IMG/VR virus record: IMGVR_UViG_3300020468_000074
Coordinates: 1 to 23,785 of that record
DNA from: a virus
Direction: 5' to 3' (one strand)
DNA length: 23,785 nucleotides
Part shown: positions 3,190 through 9,796 of the stretch, piece after piece
Position numbering within the stretch: position 1 is the stretch's first letter
How the letters are laid out: each line of letters starts with the position of its first letter
Translations under genes and position numbers: made by a program
Notes under the pieces: generated by a model
Databases searched by the model: none
Told to the model about the DNA's origin: nothing
What the model saw: the letters and a program-made list of their open reading frames with translations, nothing else

Positions 3190-3410
3190 TGAAATCTGAA
3201 TTGAAAAATCTTATAAAGACTTTTGAATCTGATCAAGTTGGTCAGCAGAAATTTAATGCTTTCTTACAGTATTGTTTCTATGGTGTTAAGAATCCTAAGA
3301 AAAAGACTCATTCTAAAAAGATAATAAATAAATATGATAACTTAAGAACAAGTCTTGTTAAGTATATCCTTGCACATGAAAAAGAGATAAAATTAGAATT
3401 AAATAAATGA
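3189..3410 (+). CDS. Small basic protein of unknown function
   Basis: This 73-residue protein is rich in Lys and Asn and is predicted helical, with no Cys pair, signal peptide or membrane segment. Its ATG overlaps the previous stop and its own end overlaps the start of the next gene (ATGA at 3407-3410), so all three are likely coupled. The segment NPKKKTHSKKIINKYDNLRTSLVKYILAHEKEI suggests a helical hairpin but matches no family I recognise. Its position between a possible nuclease and putative head proteins gives no clear functional hint. Confidence 0.7.
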   Translation: MKSELKNLIKTFESDQVGQQKFNAFLQYCFYGVKNPKKKTHSKKIINKYDNLRTSLVKYILAHEKEIKLELNK

Positions 3411-4684
3411 AATCCTTTTTAAATTTTTTATCTGAATCTGCTACACAACAGGCAGCCCGTATGGGGTTGACTGGTGATGGTCATGGAGGCTGGTATAAAG
3501 ATGGAGAGTTTGTTGCAAAGACAGAGAAAGGAAGATTAAAGTTTTATAATAAGAGACAGAAAGTAGGTGGTAAAGATCCAGCACAGACTGATAAAGAAAA
3601 AAGTTTATCTGGTAAACAACCAGCAGGAGCACAACCACAACCACAGGCACAACCAAAAGGTAAAGTACCTCAACAGGACGTTGCACCTAAGGAACCTATG
3701 AAACAAGAGGATGATCCAGATGCACCAGCAAGTCCTGAGAAGTTAATGCCTCCTCAAGTTGAGAAAACAAAAGGAACTTTAACTATTGCATTTGGTAGAT
3801 TCAATCCACCAACAACAGGACATGAGAAATTATTAGATACTGTTTCTAAATCTTCTGATGATGGTGACTATATTATAGTACCTTCACGCAGTCAGGATAA
3901 GAAAAAGAATCCTTTAGATGCTGATCAGAAGGTCGCAGTGATGAGACAGATGTTCCCTAATCATAGTGAGAGAATTGTTAATGATTCTCAGAATAGAACT
4001 ATCTTTGATGTATTAAAGAAAGCTCATATGGATGGTTATGCAGGAGTAAGAATTGTAGGTGGTGCTGATAGACAGAAAGAATTTGATAAGTTAGTTAATA
4101 ATTACAACGGATTACATTATGACTTTGATAAAGTAGAAGTTCGTTCTGCTGGTGATAGAGATCCTGATGCTGAAGATATAACAGGAATGTCTGCATCAAA
4201 GCAAAGAAAGTATGCTGCAGAGAATGACTTTGAAAACTTCTTAAAAGGTGTTCCATCAGCAATGAATAAGAAGGTTGCTAAAGAACTCTTTAAAAATATT
4301 CGTGCAGGTATGAATATTAAAGAAGGATGGAGTCTTTGGAGAATCGCACCTAAGTTAGACTGGGAGAATTTAAGAGAACATTTTGTAGGTAAAAAGATAT
4401 ATCAAGTTGGTGATTTAGTTGAAAATCTTAACCATGGATTAATTGGTAGGATTATTCGTAGAGGCACAAACTATTTGATTTGTGTTACTGAAGATAATAT
4501 TATGTTTAAGTCGTGGATCAAGGATGTAACAGAAGCTAAGAAGTACAATAATGATACTAAAATTTCTGGTGTTCCTGCCAATCAACGTGAAATTGGTACC
4601 CCTGCATTGCTTAATTATGCTAAGTCAATGGTTCCTGGCCAAGACTGGGGTAAACAATTCATAAATAAATATAGAAAAAAGTAA
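3407..4684 (+). CDS. Putative internal head protein with cytidylyltransferase-like nucleotidyltransferase domain
   Basis: The 425-residue protein looks modular. Residues 1-10 (MKSFLNFLSE) closely resemble the T4 internal-protein capsid-targeting peptide and end in an L-x-E site of the kind cut by the gp21 prohead protease. Residues 20-50 hold a GDGHGGWYKDGEFVAKT segment. Residues 55-120 are a Gln/Pro/Lys-rich linker. Residues 124-270 form a nucleotidyltransferase fold: FGRFNPPTTGH (129-139) is the T/HxGH motif and GMSASKQR (260-267) resembles the S-x-T-x-x-R motif. Residues 335-375 (QVGDLVENLNHGLIGRIIRR) look like a small beta-barrel module. The substrate cannot be read from sequence. ATGA overlap with the upstream gene. 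Capsid packaging is inferred. Confidence 0.8.
   Translation: MKSFLNFLSESATQQAARMGLTGDGHGGWYKDGEFVAKTEKGRLKFYNKRQKVGGKDPAQTDKEKSLSGKQPAGAQPQPQAQPKGKVPQQDVAPKEPMKQEDDPDAPASPEKLMPPQVEKTKGTLTIAFGRFNPPTTGHEKLLDTVSKSSDDGDYIIVPSRSQDKKKNPLDADQKVAVMRQMFPNHSERIVNDSQNRTIFDVLKKAHMDGYAGVRIVGGADRQKEFDKLVNNYNGLHYDFDKVEVRSAGDRDPDAEDITGMSASKQRKYAAENDFENFLKGVPSAMNKKVAKELFKNIRAGMNIKEGWSLWRIAPKLDWENLREHFVGKKIYQVGDLVENLNHGLIGRIIRRGTNYLICVTEDNIMFKSWIKDVTEAKKYNNDTKISGVPANQREIGTPALLNYAKSMVPGQDWGKQFINKYRKK
4660..4667 (+). promoter_or_regulatory. Candidate T4-like late promoter
   Basis: CATAAATA matches the T4 late promoter TATAAATA at seven of eight positions and lies 36 bases upstream of the ATG at 4704, similar to the spacing of the better candidate at 7789. 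It lies inside the end of the preceding coding sequence and in an AT-rich stretch, so a chance match is possible. Confidence 0.3.
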
Positions 4685-4703: not shown

Positions 4704-6479
4704 ATGAGTAAACATATAGTTGAAGAAAATCCCTCTGCACAACCTGCTGCTTCTGGTGCCCAAGGTGCCGATCAGAAGATAAAAAAGCAAGCACGTCAAC
4801 TTGCGTATGATGTTAGGTATAAAGTAAAGCAAGGATTTAAGGAAGGTCAAAAAGCAGATCCAGTTTCTCTAAAGAGAGCGTATCTTTCTCAACTGGGTAA
4901 GTCACCAGCACCTGGCCCTGTTAAGGCAGCTGCTAAGACAATGCTTGTTGGTGAGTCCTACGAATTTGTTGATATTACTGATACTGTAAAGTCTTCTATT
5001 TCTGATGTATTGAATAATGTGTTCACTCTTGGTGGTGGTAAGAAAGAAGAAGAAATAGTTGAGGCAGATCTAGGTAAGAAGTTTAAAGTAAGAGTAAAGG
5101 ATAAGAAGACTGGTAGATCTTACATAAGAATGGCTGATCGTGCAAAGATCTCTGAACTAAGAAAGAATCCTAACATCGCATCTGTTGAGATGACTGGTGG
5201 ATCAGGTACACCATATGAAGGTGAGAAAAAGAAAGGGGAAGCAACTGCTAGTGTAAAATCAGGTAAAGGTATTCCTGGTGATATAGAAAAGGTTAAGGAA
5301 GAATTTATTGCCGAGGTAGGTGAGAAAGAAAATCCTGATGCTAATGGTAAGAAGATTGATGTAATGAAGGGTAAGAACAAAGTTACTATTAACCCTACTC
5401 AATCTGAACAGGTTGAACCTGATAAAGATGAAAAACCAAAAATGGATCCAAAGGAGAAAAGAGTTGGTATGATGAAACGTATGATTCTTCAAAAGAAAAT
5501 GCAAGCAGTTAGATCTGGTGCTGGTGCAGACATAGTTGCACATACTGAATTAGAAGGTGATGTTATTGAAGAAGGTAGTCTTAAGCAAGCAAGAAAAAAT
5601 ATTGGAATGGATCCAAACAAACCTTCCTGTTGGGATGGCTACAAAGCAAAGGGTACAAAAAAGAAGGGCGGTAAGACCGTTCCTAACTGTGTTAAAGAGG
5701 AGGAACTCATGGAAAAGAAAGCGAAGAAAGATTATGATGGTGATGGTAAAATTGAATCTGGTAAGGATGAGTACTTTGGATCAAAAGACAAAGCAATCAA
5801 AAAGGCCATGAAGAAAGAATCCATGAAGGAAGGTTATGGTAGTAAGAAAAAGAAAAAGAAATCTTATGGCGAGTCTACCAATAAGTTAGGTTTAAAATCT
5901 TGGCAGAGTATGCTTGAGGGATCTTATGGTGAGATTGATAGACCTGTTGAAAAGGAAAGTGATACACCAGAAGTAACAGCTGATGTATGTTTTGATGCTG
6001 GTGCTGCAATTCCTACAACTATTAAAGGAACTGGAGATCCAAGAGAACTTCCTACTGCAATTAATCTTATGAAGAATAAGTACAGAGCACAAGGTATCAT
6101 GGCTTCTAAAGAACCTGATGGTAAATTAGTTGAAGGTATGGCTACTCCTGAGTCAGGAACTGGTAAGTATTATAATGAAAAGAAACCTACTGCTATGCAA
6201 CTTGCTAAAAGAAAAAAGATGGATAAGGTTAAGTCCTTAACTAATCAAGGAAAACATAAAGAAGCAAGTGCATTGTATAAAGAAGGTATTGATGTTATTA
6301 AAGACATTTTAACTAAGGAAGTAGTTGATGAAAAGATCAGTGCTTCTGGATACGCTCGTGCTAAGAAGTGGAGAGAAGATCAGGCAAGGGCAAAGGATAA
6401 AAAAGAACAGGAACACTATGCTAATAAAGCAAAGACTCACAAGTGGGATGGTGAGAAGTGGAATAAGAGGGAATCTTAA
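4704..6479 (+). CDS. Large Lys/Glu-rich protein, probable prohead-core or internal virion protein
   Basis: The 591-residue protein is highly charged and largely low complexity, with long Lys runs. Visible modules are a helical N-terminus (25-65), a short domain around 124-168, a segment NKPSCWDGYKAKGTKKKGGK with a following Cys (305-329), and DYDGDGKIESGKDEYFG (343-359), a Ca2+-loop-like Asp pattern. The C-terminus (550-591) is helical and charged. Several I/L-x-E triplets at linker positions (I118-V-E, I202-A-E, I288-E-E, L335-M-E, L475-V-E) would suit the T4 gp21 protease. I infer a head-interior protein from composition, these sites and flanking genes with capsid-targeting-like starts. It begins 19 nt after the previous stop and its own stop overlaps the next ATG. 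Confidence 0.75.
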   Translation: MSKHIVEENPSAQPAASGAQGADQKIKKQARQLAYDVRYKVKQGFKEGQKADPVSLKRAYLSQLGKSPAPGPVKAAAKTMLVGESYEFVDITDTVKSSISDVLNNVFTLGGGKKEEEIVEADLGKKFKVRVKDKKTGRSYIRMADRAKISELRKNPNIASVEMTGGSGTPYEGEKKKGEATASVKSGKGIPGDIEKVKEEFIAEVGEKENPDANGKKIDVMKGKNKVTINPTQSEQVEPDKDEKPKMDPKEKRVGMMKRMILQKKMQAVRSGAGADIVAHTELEGDVIEEGSLKQARKNIGMDPNKPSCWDGYKAKGTKKKGGKTVPNCVKEEELMEKKAKKDYDGDGKIESGKDEYFGSKDKAIKKAMKKESMKEGYGSKKKKKKSYGESTNKLGLKSWQSMLEGSYGEIDRPVEKESDTPEVTADVCFDAGAAIPTTIKGTGDPRELPTAINLMKNKYRAQGIMASKEPDGKLVEGMATPESGTGKYYNEKKPTAMQLAKRKKMDKVKSLTNQGKHKEASALYKEGIDVIKDILTKEVVDEKISASGYARAKKWREDQARAKDKKEQEHYANKAKTHKWDGEKWNKRES

Positions 6480-6721
6480 TGAAGTCATTTAAAGATTTTA
6501 TAAGTGAAGAAGGCTATGATCGTATCAAGGATCGCATAGCAATGAGGGGTGGAGATCCTAGTTCACCAAAAAAATCAGATGCAACTACTCGTCCAGTAAG
6601 TAAAGAAATCAAAAAGCAAAAAGGTAAAACTGTGCTTCAGAAACAAACAGAGAAGAAGTATGGTAAGGGTGCTACTGCTATGGATGTTGTAAAGGCAAAG
6701 ATTAAAAAGGGTGAAATATAA
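6479..6721 (+). CDS. Small basic protein with capsid-targeting-like N-terminus
   Basis: This 80-residue protein starts MKSFKDFISE|EGYD. The first ten residues fit the pattern M-K-x-F/Y-x-x-F-I/L-x-E shared with T4 internal head proteins and with the gene at 3407, and end in I-S-E, a candidate gp21 cleavage site. The remainder is basic (about a quarter Lys) with Gln and Thr and no hydrophobic core, as expected for a DNA-associated internal protein. Both ends overlap neighbours by one base (TAATG). It is most likely a packaged internal protein; this is inferred from the N-terminus, size and charge, since no family is recognised. Confidence 0.7.
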   Translation: MKSFKDFISEEGYDRIKDRIAMRGGDPSSPKKSDATTRPVSKEIKKQKGKTVLQKQTEKKYGKGATAMDVVKAKIKKGEI

Positions 6722-7563
6722 TGCCAGCAGTTTCTAAGAAACAGCAAAGGTTTTTTGGGATGGTTCGTGCAGCCCAAAAGGGTGAGATGAAAAATCCTTC
6801 ATCTGAAGTATCAGATGTTGCTAGTGATATTAGTATGAAGGATGCAAAGAAATTTGCAAAGACTAAGCATAAAGGATTGCCTGAAAAAAAAGCAGTAAAA
6901 GAGGAGTCTGTCCCTAGAAATTCAATGGGAAAACCTATTAGAATTAAAGATAAAATTAAAGCAGCAAAAGGACAAATTCCTCATAAAGTTACTGAAGCAA
7001 TTAAGAGAGATGAGTATGGAGATCCAATTGGTGGGCCAAAGATATCTAAAAAACAATTAAAGAAAAACCTTGCAAGTAATGAGAAGGATGAAAAGATTGT
7101 TCATAGTGAAGGTGCAGCATGGACAAAGAAATCAGGTAAGAATAAAGAAGGTGGTTTAAATGAGAAAGGTAGGAAGTCTTACGAACGTGAGAATCCTGGT
7201 TCAGATTTAAAAGCACCAAGTAAGAAGAAAGGTAATAAGAGAAGAGCATCATTCTGTGCTCGTATGAAGGGAATGAAAAAGAAATTAACAAGTGCAAAGA
7301 CTGCAAGAGATCCAGACAGTCGTATTAATAAATCCCTTAGAGCATGGAACTGTAGTTATAAACCTGAAGGTAAATTGGTTGAAGACTACGAAGAAAAAGC
7401 AAAAAGTAGGCAGAAGTTTGTGGATTTTTACAAGAAAGCAAAAGACGCTAAGGCAAAAAAGCAATCAGATTCGGTGAGAACAGATAGTAGAAAACATGGA
7501 ATAAAGTTCTCAGACTCAAAAGGAAGTGGTAGATTAAAGGCTGGAAAGAAAATTTATGATTAA
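6721..7563 (+). CDS. DUF3008-like / DUF6321-like basic protein
   Basis: The 280-residue protein has two recognisable parts. Residues 1-55 (PAVSKKQQRFFGMVRAAQKG, then SMKDAKKFAKTKHKGLPEK) match the DUF3008 type of small phage and bacterial protein. Residues 134-220 (AAWTKKSGKNKEGGLNEKGR, then SFCARMKGMKKKLTSAKTA and DPDSRINKSLRAWNC) match a conserved phage module that I believe is DUF6321. The function of either module is unknown to me. The last 50 residues are Lys/Asp/Ser rich. It is the last of the tightly coupled 3407-7563 block and shares the strongly basic composition, so it may also be a head-interior or DNA-binding protein. Confidence 0.8.
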   Translation: MPAVSKKQQRFFGMVRAAQKGEMKNPSSEVSDVASDISMKDAKKFAKTKHKGLPEKKAVKEESVPRNSMGKPIRIKDKIKAAKGQIPHKVTEAIKRDEYGDPIGGPKISKKQLKKNLASNEKDEKIVHSEGAAWTKKSGKNKEGGLNEKGRKSYERENPGSDLKAPSKKKGNKRRASFCARMKGMKKKLTSAKTARDPDSRINKSLRAWNCSYKPEGKLVEDYEEKAKSRQKFVDFYKKAKDAKAKKQSDSVRTDSRKHGIKFSDSKGSGRLKAGKKIYD

Positions 7564-7829: not shown

Positions 7830-8906
7830 ATGGCTCTTTGGGGTACAAATGATAATATACCGTCAGTAGGAACCGTTACATTAAATTGGACTCCAAACGC
7901 TGATGGATCACATACAGTCACAGGTAGTGCAACACCTACAGTTTTCGGAACAGTTGGTGCTGCTAAAACGGGCGATATAATCCGTTTTGGTTTGAGAGAT
8001 GGTGTAGAGACATCAAAATATTTTGGAGATGCAGTAATCACAGGTATTACAAGTGCAAGAACTTTAACTATTGGTTCTACTGCTGGACTTGTTAATGCAG
8101 CAATCGCAGATACTAGTTACTACATATCTGAACTTCCAAAATACACAGTATTGGATAGTTATTACAGTAATACACACGATACAGTTGCAACATTTAAGAA
8201 CATTAAACAAGCAGAAGCTTCTATAGCATCTGTTACTGCTGGTGTTGGTAAGACTGTAGTTGGAGTTAATGCTGATGATGGATCAGATATCTCAGTATTA
8301 GGTCTTAAGAAAGGAGATGCTTTAGTAAATAACAGCACTACAATTATTATTGGAGCAGTTGAGTCTGCTGTAAGTACTGCAAACGCAAACACTACCGTTG
8401 GATTAGCATCAGTCTTTGCTGTTGCTCCTGGTGGAATTGTTGTTGGAGATACTGTTGATGTTGATGTTGCTGGACAAGGTGTAGTCGGTGTCGCTATTAC
8501 AGAGATAACTGCTTCTTACGTTGCAATCGGTGAAACTGTAAATACTCAGATTAATGCTGGTTCTGACGTAACCTTTAGAGGTAATGTAATTAGTCTTGAA
8601 GGTACAGTTGCTGCAACTATTACTCAGAACGATCCACTTATCTTCCAGAGAAAGTCTGGTGGATATGATAGAAACGTCTATGGTATTTCAACTACTACTC
8701 AGTTAGGTACAGGTTCTGACGGTGGAATTAATGGAAAAGAATATATTACACCTGGTGCTGGATGGGTTGGTGTTACAACCTTCATTGATATGCACGGTAA
8801 CTTAAGAGTGAAGAGTGAAATACTCGTCGCTGCTGGTGGAGATGCTGGAATCACAACTGGTTCTGATAGTATCGCATACCCAACTAATAGAGGTGCTAAC
8901 GCATAA
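7830..8906 (+). CDS. Probable virion structural protein
   Basis: The 358-residue protein starts MALWGTNDN and is rich in Gly, Thr, Val and Ala with alternating beta-strand-like segments and no Cys. Its C-terminal part (VYGISTTTQL, then AGWVGVTTFIDMHGNLRVKS) resembles a module I associate with cyanophage virion structural proteins. Codons are more uniform than in neighbours, with many GGT, GTT, GCT and ACT, which suits high expression. It has its own exact TATAAATA late promoter and a 5' leader with a GGGAA ribosome site (7819-7823). The middle (about 130-270) looks like repeated beta motifs (TTVGLA, VVGVAI). Whether it is a tail, fibre or capsid decoration protein cannot be decided here. Confidence 0.8.
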   Translation: MALWGTNDNIPSVGTVTLNWTPNADGSHTVTGSATPTVFGTVGAAKTGDIIRFGLRDGVETSKYFGDAVITGITSARTLTIGSTAGLVNAAIADTSYYISELPKYTVLDSYYSNTHDTVATFKNIKQAEASIASVTAGVGKTVVGVNADDGSDISVLGLKKGDALVNNSTTIIIGAVESAVSTANANTTVGLASVFAVAPGGIVVGDTVDVDVAGQGVVGVAITEITASYVAIGETVNTQINAGSDVTFRGNVISLEGTVAATITQNDPLIFQRKSGGYDRNVYGISTTTQLGTGSDGGINGKEYITPGAGWVGVTTFIDMHGNLRVKSEILVAAGGDAGITTGSDSIAYPTNRGANA

Positions 8907-8930: not shown

Positions 8931-9302
8931 ATGAAATTTGATGAATTGAATGAAAACAATTATTTGTTATTTGCTATAAAATTCTATGATAATCCTCAAG
9001 CTCTCACTAGAGATGATTTTGATGATGATTTGAAGCGAATCAAATACATAAAAAGATTACTGAAAAGGTATAAGAATACAGGTGAGCTTAAGGTTCACCT
9101 TATTTTAAATCACCTAACAGTTCTATTCAATGTGTTTGATGATGCTGCTGTAGCATTATTGTTTTACAATTTAGAAGAAGATCTTTGGCCCTATCTAAAG
9201 AGTTTTCTTGTATTTCTGAATAGAATTGCAGAGTATCCTCGCACTGCAATTAATGATATTCATGAGGATAAAGACTGTTTGAAACAACTTCAGGAACTCT
9301 AA
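8931..9302 (+). CDS. Conserved-looking helical protein of unknown function
   Basis: The 123-residue protein is acidic and helical (KFDELNENNYLLFAIKFYDN, then IKRLLKRYKNTGELKVHLIL and NHLTVLFNVFDDAAVALLFY). It resembles a hypothetical protein repeatedly found in marine T4-like phages, but I do not know a function. There is no signal peptide, and the hydrophobic residues are spread as in a soluble helical bundle rather than a membrane span. It follows the structural gene after 24 nt and ends with TAATG overlapping the next gene, so it is probably part of the late transcript. Confidence 0.75.
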   Translation: MKFDELNENNYLLFAIKFYDNPQALTRDDFDDDLKRIKYIKRLLKRYKNTGELKVHLILNHLTVLFNVFDDAAVALLFYNLEEDLWPYLKSFLVFLNRIAEYPRTAINDIHEDKDCLKQLQEL

Positions 9303-9796
9303 TGAATATTAATAGGTTCGTTTCTAATATAAAACACATAAGAGAAGCAGCACCTACTAATTCTTCAGGTACTGGTGGTTTCGGTGCTAGTGCATCATCC
9401 CCAGTTGCAGGATATGATAAATATCTATTTCCAGGTGATGCTGGTTTATTAACCAGAGATTATCAGACACCCTATGGTTTGAAATGGGGTTTGAGTGATG
9501 TTGTTCCTGTTAAACATCTAACACTTGATGATATTGATATTATGACTAATGCGTCTAAAGAGTTTTATAATAAAATGACTGCACCAAAACCACAAAAATC
9601 TAATCCTATGGAGAATGTAATGAACATTGTTCGTAGTCTTAAGGAAGAAGCACCTGTAAACAATGTGGGTGGTGGTGCTATTGCAGGAGCAGTTGGGGGA
9701 GAAGCACCTCCTGTGTTTAGTAAGAAGAAGAAACCGCCAATTCTGGCCAGAGGATTAATGCCTGGTGCTAGAAAACGATGGGCAACCAAGAATTAG
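9302..9796 (+). CDS. Putative virion-associated protein with repeated prohead-protease-like sites
   Basis: The 164-residue protein has two related segments: NIKHIREAAPTN near the N-terminus (9-20) and NIVRSLKEEAPVN at 108-120. In each, an I-R-E or L-K-E triplet precedes A/E-A-P, matching the I/L-x-E specificity of the T4 gp21 prohead protease. Each is followed by a Gly/Ser/Ala-rich stretch (GTGGFGASA; VGGGAIAGAVGG). The middle (35-95) has a conserved look (YDKYLFPGDAGLLTRDYQTP) and the C-terminus is basic (SKKKKPP and ARKRW). It may be processed during head maturation, but this is inference. The ATG overlaps the stop of the previous gene. No enzyme motif is seen. Confidence 0.7.
   Translation: MNINRFVSNIKHIREAAPTNSSGTGGFGASASSPVAGYDKYLFPGDAGLLTRDYQTPYGLKWGLSDVVPVKHLTLDDIDIMTNASKEFYNKMTAPKPQKSNPMENVMNIVRSLKEEAPVNNVGGGAIAGAVGGEAPPVFSKKKKPPILARGLMPGARKRWATKN

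What the first reader, a model, noticed from the sequence alone, without database searches (positions are those of the whole stretch)
3407..4684. Nucleotidyltransferase enzyme with a T4-like capsid-targeting N-terminus
The protein starts MKSFLNFLSE and the 80-residue protein at 6479 starts MKSFKDFISE. Both fit M-K-x-F/Y-x-x-F-I/L-x-E, close to the T4 internal-protein capsid-targeting peptide that is cut by the gp21 protease after I/L-x-E. Behind it here is a cytidylyltransferase-like domain (FGRFNPPTTGH at 129-139; GMSASKQR at 260-267). If correct, the phage packages and injects an active nucleotidyltransferase with its DNA, as T4 does with Alt and IPI, to modify host molecules at once on entry. 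Seen: sequences and motifs. Known: T4 system. Inferred: packaging and injection.
Basis: partly seen in the sequence, partly recalled or inferred. Interest (0 to 1): 0.72.

Follow-up and report, generated by a model that had tools for sequence, protein, structure and literature searches.

The report
Cyanophage enzyme tagged for head packaging
This ocean virus makes an NAD-synthesis-like enzyme whose first ten residues match the address tag that phage T4 uses to load proteins into its head, and relatives of this enzyme have been found in purified virus particles, so it is probably carried in with the DNA.

Summary
In detail: ORF 3407-4684 (425 aa) starts MKSFLNFLSE, the 80-aa ORF at 6479 starts MKSFKDFISE, and a CTP_transf_like domain follows. 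The window is a T4-like cyanophage (Kyanoviridae) fragment. The same DNA pattern run on T4 finds only ipII, ipIII and gp61.1. In a 61-sequence alignment, F7 and E10 are the only invariant columns before the catalytic domain, with F4 at 90% or more. T4 work assigns targeting to residues 4 and 7 and processing to 8 and 10. Orthologues were already detected by mass spectrometry in virions of S-SM1, S-SCSM1, S-SZBM1 and S-CREM2, and all four start with the tag (one in a nine-residue form). In S-CREM2 the five best-scoring N-termini of 219 genes are all virion-detected (p = 6.5e-4): SAM hydrolase, kinase, nucleotidyltransferase and two hypotheticals. The published papers left open whether these enzymes are packaged or contaminants; the tag argues for sorted packaging. 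I found no paper making the link. A second ~35-aa 'DGHGxW' module behind the tag is shared with other virion proteins. The fold is an adenylyltransferase (PPAT/NMNAT-like), not specifically a cytidylyltransferase. Cleavage, injection, activity and substrate remain inferred.

The parts
3407..4684 (+). Gene for the CTS-tagged nucleotidyltransferase (425 aa; T4-GC190 family, 'cytitidyltransferase'/NMNAT-like)
   Evidence: ORF; PF01467; 59.5% identical over its length to P-SSM2 PSSM2_194 = T4-GC190
3407..3436 (+). Capsid-targeting sequence MKSFLNFLSE (residues 1-10); predicted gp21-type cut between codons 10 and 11 (3436/3437)
   Evidence: F7 and E10 invariant, F4 at least 90% in 61 homologs; T4 ipII/ipIII match the same pattern; gp23 of relatives has LTE|A in the same context; the cut itself is inferred
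3440..3556 (+). Post-CTS module, about 35-40 aa, ARMGLxxDGHGGWYKxGEFVAKTEKGxLKF (residues 12-50)
   Evidence: Shared with S-N03 kinase (twice), S-N03 972-aa protein, S-CREM2 ORF12 and ORF14
3560..3760 (+). Variable P/Q/E-rich linker (residues 52-118)
   Evidence: AF2 pLDDT below 50 for 69-109; total protein length differs among homologs
3764..4306 (+). Adenylyltransferase/cytidylyltransferase-fold domain (residues 120-300)
   Evidence: AF2 pLDDT about 90; Foldseek best matches PPAT/CoaD and NMNAT
3791..3823 (+). Catalytic motif FGRFNPPTTGH (129-139; (H/T)xGH signature)
   Evidence: F129, G130, R131, N133, P134, P135, G138, H139 invariant
4184..4207 (+). Second nucleotide-binding motif GMSASKQR (260-267; SxSxxR)
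   Evidence: S262, A263, S264, R267 invariant
4358..4540 (+). C-terminal beta-strand module, VGDLVENLNHGLIGRIIRRGTNYLICVTED... (about 318-378); a separate gene in P-HM1 (PHM1_163)
   Evidence: Found in 471 phage records; strands at 337-376 in the model; P-HM1 split
6479..6721 (+). Second CTS-tagged protein, 80 aa, MKSFKDFISE (CTS 6479-6508)
   Evidence: Pattern match; 68-90 aa family with the tag in related contigs; no mass-spectrometry evidence for this small family
6721..7563 (+). Neighbour with DUF3008-like N-terminus and DUF6321; N-terminal part matches S-SCSM1_93, annotated virion protein
   Evidence: 66.7% identity over 57 aa; annotation; Pfam
7830..8906 (+). Neighbour homologous to S-SCSM1_95 (tail fiber protein, annotated virion protein); marks the virion-gene cluster
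   Evidence: E 4e-20; annotation

Best explanation
The gene encodes an internal head protein of a T4-like cyanophage. Its first ten residues act as a T4-type capsid-targeting sequence: aromatic residue 4 and F7 bind the assembling prohead core, then the phage's gp21-type protease cuts after E10, leaving the enzyme in the head beside the DNA. (Sequence, conservation and virion detection of orthologues are shown; core binding and the cut are inferred from T4.) The mature enzyme is then delivered to the host cell with the DNA (inferred), where an adenylyltransferase-fold domain with intact catalytic motifs acts at the start of infection. The likeliest reaction is NMN plus ATP to NAD+, which would sustain the NAD pool (inferred; PPAT-like or other nucleotidyl transfer not excluded). 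A second short module behind the tag is common to several cyanophage virion proteins and probably helps loading, unloading or anchoring (inferred).
For: Positive control: the pattern hits ipII, ipIII and gp61.1 in T4, and nothing in SPO1 or phiKZ. Conservation: 228 of 246 homologs carry the tag and most of the rest are close variants such as MNFTQFLREA and MLTFHVFITEA. F7 and E10 are the only invariant columns before residue 129, while the rest of the N-terminal third diverges between lineages; F4, F7 and E10 use both synonymous codons in the window-type lineage. T4 genetics: residues 4 and 7 target, 8 and 10 govern processing (PMC9026906). Virion detection of tag-bearing orthologues: S-SM1 T4-GC190 (PMC3037559; MKKFSAFLNE), S-SCSM1 ORF91 (PMC9602691; MKSFLQFLKE), S-SZBM1_140 (PMC9146016; MRFRQFIIE), S-CREM2 ORF154 (PMC10665884; MKNFSSFLTE). 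Predictive test: a CTS matrix without S-CREM2 sequences ranks 219 S-CREM2 N-termini; the top five, separated by a clear score gap, are all virion-detected (p 6.5e-4). Protease context: gp23 of relatives has LTE|A. Fold and family.
Against: No virion data for this phage; the window is a fragment without its own gp21/gp22/gp23. The published authors allow that the enzymes are highly expressed contaminants. Detection is weak in places: 2 peptides in S-SZBM1, 3 in S-CREM2. One strict CTS protein of S-SCSM1 (SSCSM1_30) is not annotated as a virion protein. P-HM1, HTVC008M and DLP_6 homologs lack the strict tag, so the enzyme can also be used unpackaged. The NMN substrate is unproven: all NCBIfam matches are below their cut-offs for the window protein.
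Confidence: 0.8

Rival explanations
1. The enzyme is an abundant cytoplasmic infection protein that co-purifies with virions, and the N-terminal motif is incidental or serves another role.
For: Authors of the S-SCSM1 and S-CREM2 proteomes state this possibility; low peptide counts; homologs without the tag exist in P-HM1, RaK2 and Cr30.
Against: Tag residues are as conserved as catalytic ones. Virion detection repeats in four phages in separate studies. In S-CREM2 no protein outside the virion set has a positive CTS score, and enzymes such as RNR, DNA polymerase and RecA are absent from the virion list.
Confidence: 0.1
2. The protein is a CTS-targeted core or scaffold component needed to build the head, with a degenerate or dispensable enzyme domain (IPIII-like role).
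For: CTS proteins join the prohead core; T4 IPIII affects head morphology. It is a core gene of all 16 cyanophages compared by Sullivan et al..
Against: All catalytic signature residues are invariant across 61 homologs, which a scaffold role would not require. Copy number looks low: emPAI 0.26 against 27.6 for the capsid protein and 0.30 for the protease in S-SZBM1.
Confidence: 0.12
3. The packaged enzyme is not an NAD enzyme but transfers a nucleotide to another small molecule (PPAT-like, for CoA) or acts on RNA or protein. (A rival to the substrate only; compatible with packaging.)
For: Foldseek's best matches are PPAT/CoaD rather than NMNAT; some members match CoaD models; a conserved upstream neighbour family DUF6267 has a KWDGAP ligase-like motif.
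Against: GRFNP before the (T/H)xGH motif is NMNAT/NadR-like (own knowledge); NadR and NadD models match more members (47 and 56 of 61) than CoaD (25).
Confidence: 0.4

Closest known systems
T4 internal proteins IPII and IPIII with the capsid-targeting sequence MKTYQEFIAE
   Same: Same spacing and same residue classes at positions 1, 2, 4 (aromatic), 7 (F), 8 (I/L), 10 (E), followed by A/S; relatives encode a T4-like head and gp21-type protease.
   Different: Cargo is a 425-aa enzyme with an adenylyltransferase fold rather than a small basic protein; an extra conserved module sits behind the tag; host is a marine cyanobacterium.
T4 Alt (packaged and injected ADP-ribosyltransferase)
   Same: Enzyme carried in the head and expected to act immediately at infection.
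   Different: Unrelated fold and chemistry; Alt consumes NAD+, whereas this enzyme, if NMNAT-like, would make it.
NMNAT-like/cytidylyltransferase virion proteins of S-SM1 (T4-GC190), S-SCSM1 ORF91, S-SZBM1_140, S-CREM2 ORF154
   Same: Homologous protein, same neighbourhood near gp61-nrdA-nrdB where read, tag present in all four.
   Different: The parts of those reports that I read do not mention the tag; this window's own protein has no proteomic data.

Membership tests
T4-type capsid-targeting-sequence (CTS) internal proteins | N-terminal decapeptide with aromatic 4, F7, hydrophobic 8, E10 | tested here: met
   control in T4
T4-type capsid-targeting-sequence (CTS) internal proteins | Present in the virion | tested here: inconclusive
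   Met for four orthologues by published mass spectrometry; not measured for this phage
T4-type capsid-targeting-sequence (CTS) internal proteins | Cut by the gp21 protease after E10 | not testable with these tools
   Only context: gp23 of S-SZBM1 and S-CREM2 has LTE|A, and gp21 is encoded in both
T4-type capsid-targeting-sequence (CTS) internal proteins | Ejected into the host with the DNA | not testable with these tools
   Needs labelling or fractionation of infected cells
Cytidylyltransferase-like superfamily (PF01467) | Pfam gathering score; (H/T)xGH and SxSxxR motifs | tested here: met
   36.8 bits against 21; motif residues invariant; fold match
NMN/NaMN adenylyltransferase (NadR/NadM/NadD) | Score above the curated equivalog cut-off | tested here: not met
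   TIGR01526 25.7 bits against 341; TIGR00482 22.4 against 112
NMN/NaMN adenylyltransferase (NadR/NadM/NadD) | Catalyses NMN + ATP to NAD | not testable with these tools
   Needs an enzyme assay
Phosphopantetheine adenylyltransferase (CoaD) | Score above the curated equivalog cut-off | tested here: not met
   TIGR01510 22.5 bits against 103, although the closest folds by Foldseek are CoaD
T4-like cyanophage core gene T4-GC190 | Full-length homology and synteny upstream of gp61-nrdA-nrdB | tested here: met

The most novel reading that the evidence does not exclude
Cyanophages use a common two-part N-terminal cassette, the T4-type capsid-targeting decapeptide plus a ~35-aa DGHGxW module, to sort a battery of enzymes into the head for release at infection. 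The set includes an NMNAT-like adenylyltransferase, an APH/Ser-Thr kinase and a large protein annotated as Cas9 (with a CTS-like stretch further in); a SAM lyase carries the decapeptide alone. This would explain the unexplained enzymes in cyanophage virion proteomes and give a sequence rule for finding more.
Probability: 0.6. Interest if true: 0.75.

Novelty: new variant of a known kind. Interest (0 to 1): 0.62.

Why it matters
Enzymes kept turning up in cyanophage virion proteomes and their authors could not tell cargo from contamination. A conserved T4-type address tag on the same proteins gives a mechanism and a sequence test, and turns the question into a simple experiment (is the N-terminus at residue 11?). 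If the enzyme makes NAD+, an abundant group of ocean phages would arrive with a way to hold up host NAD from the first minute, relevant to NAD-depleting defences. The tag is also a candidate handle for loading proteins into cyanophage heads.

Tried and rejected
Late-promoter check (HATAAATA): 9 matches in the window against 9.4 expected, no information. PDB sequence searches: no significant relative. S-CBWM1 as a further proteomics case: the region read (60-109 kb of 139 kb) has no gene annotated as the homolog, so it is not counted. The idea that the 80-aa CTS protein at 6479 equals the MS-detected S-SCSM1_93 was tested and dropped; S-SCSM1_93 matches the next gene, 6721. Two related-loci runs failed through wrong coordinates; one was redone, the SAM-lyase query was not. 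A paper wanted for expression timing (PMC5029184) is not held, and supplementary tables (S-SM1 Table S8) could not be read. Considered and rejected: that the C-terminal 'ribonucleotide reductase' PHROG hit (phrog_4808) is meaningful; the module occurs across cyanophage cytidylyltransferases, and phage records annotate it inconsistently.

Full report
What is there. ORF 3407-4684 encodes 425 aa starting MKSFLNFLSE, and the 80-aa ORF at 6479 starts MKSFKDFISE. The window is a virus record of 23,785 bases. Gene order upstream of gp61 primase, nrdA and nrdB, together with a full-length match to P-SSM2 PSSM2_194 (59.5%), S-SKS1 and others, makes it a T4-like cyanophage. The family is T4-GC190, 'cytitidyltransferase'; 558 phage records match, mostly cyanophages.

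Is the tag real? The pattern ATGAARNNNTWYNNNNNNTWYHTNNNNGAR was run on complete phage records. T4 gives three hits: ipII, ipIII (both MKTYQEFIAE, the experimentally proven capsid-targeting sequence) and gp61.1; SPO1 and phiKZ give none. Thirteen T4-like records give 21 hits and no hit of the reversed control; a further 30 records, partly the same, give 31 hits with no control hit. Several of these hits are very short or doubtful ORFs, e.g. in HTVC008M and one of the two in Cr30. In neighbourhood ORFs the motif is at 77 of 3915 first ATGs and 1 of 9114 later ones, though 63 of these are one family.

Conservation pattern. Homologs were gathered from four searches of viral contigs. Of 246 with a start, 228 match a CTS expression and 13 of the other 18 are near variants (MNFTQFLREA, MLTFHVFITEA, one with a one-residue deletion); real absences are HTVC008M, DLP_6, P-HM1, RaK2 and Cr30. 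In the alignment of 61 non-redundant members the only invariant columns before residue 129 are F7 and E10, and F4 is kept in at least 90%. In the window-type lineage positions 3, 5, 6 and 9 vary while F4, F7 and E10 are kept and use both synonymous codons, so it is the protein that is conserved. Three lineages with different sequence behind the tag keep the same tag. In T4 IPIII, targeting rests on residues 4 and 7, processing on 8 and 10 (PMC9026906). A one-residue-shorter form, MRFRQFIIE|A, occurs in the S-WAM1/S-SZBM1 lineage.

Virion evidence. T4-GC190 was detected in purified S-SM1 virions (PMC3037559); the S-SM1 protein starts MKKFSAFLNEA. S-SCSM1 ORF91 (47% identical, MKSFLQFLKEA) is a virion protein (PMC9602691). 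S-SZBM1_140 was found with 2 peptides and emPAI 0.26, near the protease (0.30) and far below the capsid protein (27.6), suggesting a few copies per head (PMC9146016; the copy-number reading is mine and rough). S-CREM2 ORF154 was found with 3 peptides (PMC10665884). The authors of two of these papers say the enzymes may be cargo or contaminants. Neighbouring window genes 6721 and 7830 also match S-SCSM1 virion proteins, and a segment of 4704 matches S-SZBM1_139.

A predictive test. All 219 S-CREM2 gene starts were compared with its published list of 52 virion proteins. A strict motif finds ORF6 (SAM hydrolase), ORF14 (kinase) and ORF154 (nucleotidyltransferase): 3 of 52 virion, 0 of 167 others (p 0.013). 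A position matrix made without S-CREM2 sequences puts ORFs 154, 14, 136, 6 and 13 on top with scores from 15.4 to 5.7; the next is 0.0. All five are virion proteins (p 6.5e-4). The matrix was built after I had seen the strict result and the near-matches, so this is not a blind test. A counter-example is SSCSM1_30, which has a perfect tag but is not annotated as a virion protein; it is small, and non-detection is weak evidence.

A second shared module. Behind the tag lies a ~35-aa stretch, RMGLxxDGHGGWYxxxGEFVAKTEKGxL. A profile of it also matches the S-CREM2 kinase ORF14 (twice), ORF12 (annotated Cas9; no Pfam match), S-N03 kinase gp136 (twice) and a 972-aa S-N03 protein. In S-CREM2 both clear matches are virion proteins. 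I found no description of it in the papers read. Its function is unknown; it would stay on the mature protein if the cut is after E10.

What the enzyme does. AF2 gives a confident domain at 120-300 (pLDDT about 90), a low-confidence tag and linker and a small C-terminal beta module. Foldseek's best matches are PPAT/CoaD, then NMNAT/NaMNAT (E 1e-5 to 1e-3, 13-21% identity). NCBIfam models of NMNAT/NaMNAT (TIGR00482, 56 of 61 members; TIGR01526, 47) match more members than CoaD (25); for the window protein all are below cut-off. So 'adenylyltransferase fold, intact motifs' is shown; 'NMNAT' is my best guess at about even odds; 'cytidylyltransferase' is a superfamily name only.

Other tagged proteins. 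The same tag is on S-AdoMet lyase-family proteins (S-CREM2 ORF6 and a contig protein, PF23780, E about 1e-19), on a 105-108-aa family, and on a 106-aa Caulobacter phage Cr30 protein with a weak PARP match (E 0.0018).

Conclusion. Packaging by a T4-type capsid-targeting sequence is the best-supported reading (about 0.85-0.9 for targeting; lower for cutting and injection, lowest for NAD synthesis). Parts of this were known: the T4 tag, and the enzyme's presence in cyanophage virions. The link between them, its use across several enzymes, and the extra module appear new within the library I could search, which lacks most subscription journals.

Noticed in passing
window 9302-9796; L086 28342-29235 (S-CREM2 ORF160); L089 19303-19488 (S-SCSM1_97): Small proteins beside gp61 carry a peptide that looks like the major capsid protein's cleavage site and N-arm: window IREAAPTNSSGTGGFGASASSPVAGYDKYL against S-SZBM1 gp23 ILTEAAPTMSAGSSPAGFSGLATATGPVAGFDPVL; S-CREM2 ORF160 GATGFTGAAAPEGPVAGYDPLM against its gp23 GADGFTGAAAPGGPNAGFDPVM. 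Both named relatives are virion-detected. Compared by eye only.
   Followed up: partly
T4 NC_000866 18966-19130 (gp61.1), L297; L304: T4 gp61.1, a 54-aa hypothetical protein, has a perfect capsid-targeting sequence (MKTFKEFIKE) and sits beside gene 61; a CTS protein of similar make-up (MKTFRQFMDEDAPVNNVGGG...) occurs in a near relative of this window.
   Followed up: partly
L112 (Caulobacter phage Cr30, record position 28306-28335, minus): 106-aa protein with tag MKTFKQFFNE and a weak PARP/ADP-ribosyltransferase match: a possible Alt-like injected enzyme in a distant T4-like phage.
   Followed up: partly
L091 4869-5765, L093 4784-5989, L092 3556-4788, L094 1125-2360, L097 1718-2911, L119: A family (DUF6267 in the four scanned) with a conserved K(W/Y)DGAP ligase-like motif sits upstream of the nucleotidyltransferase in six diverse phages; in DLP_6 it carries a tag-like N-terminus MKFTQFLAES.
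   Followed up: partly
L116 and L108: S-AdoMet lyase-family proteins with capsid-targeting N-termini, suggesting packaged anti-restriction enzymes in cyanophages.
   Followed up: partly
L093 5980-7877 (P-HM1): In P-HM1 the enzyme is split: a 188-aa nucleotidyltransferase without a tag and a separate 435-aa gene with the C-terminal module, a natural untagged control.
   Followed up: no
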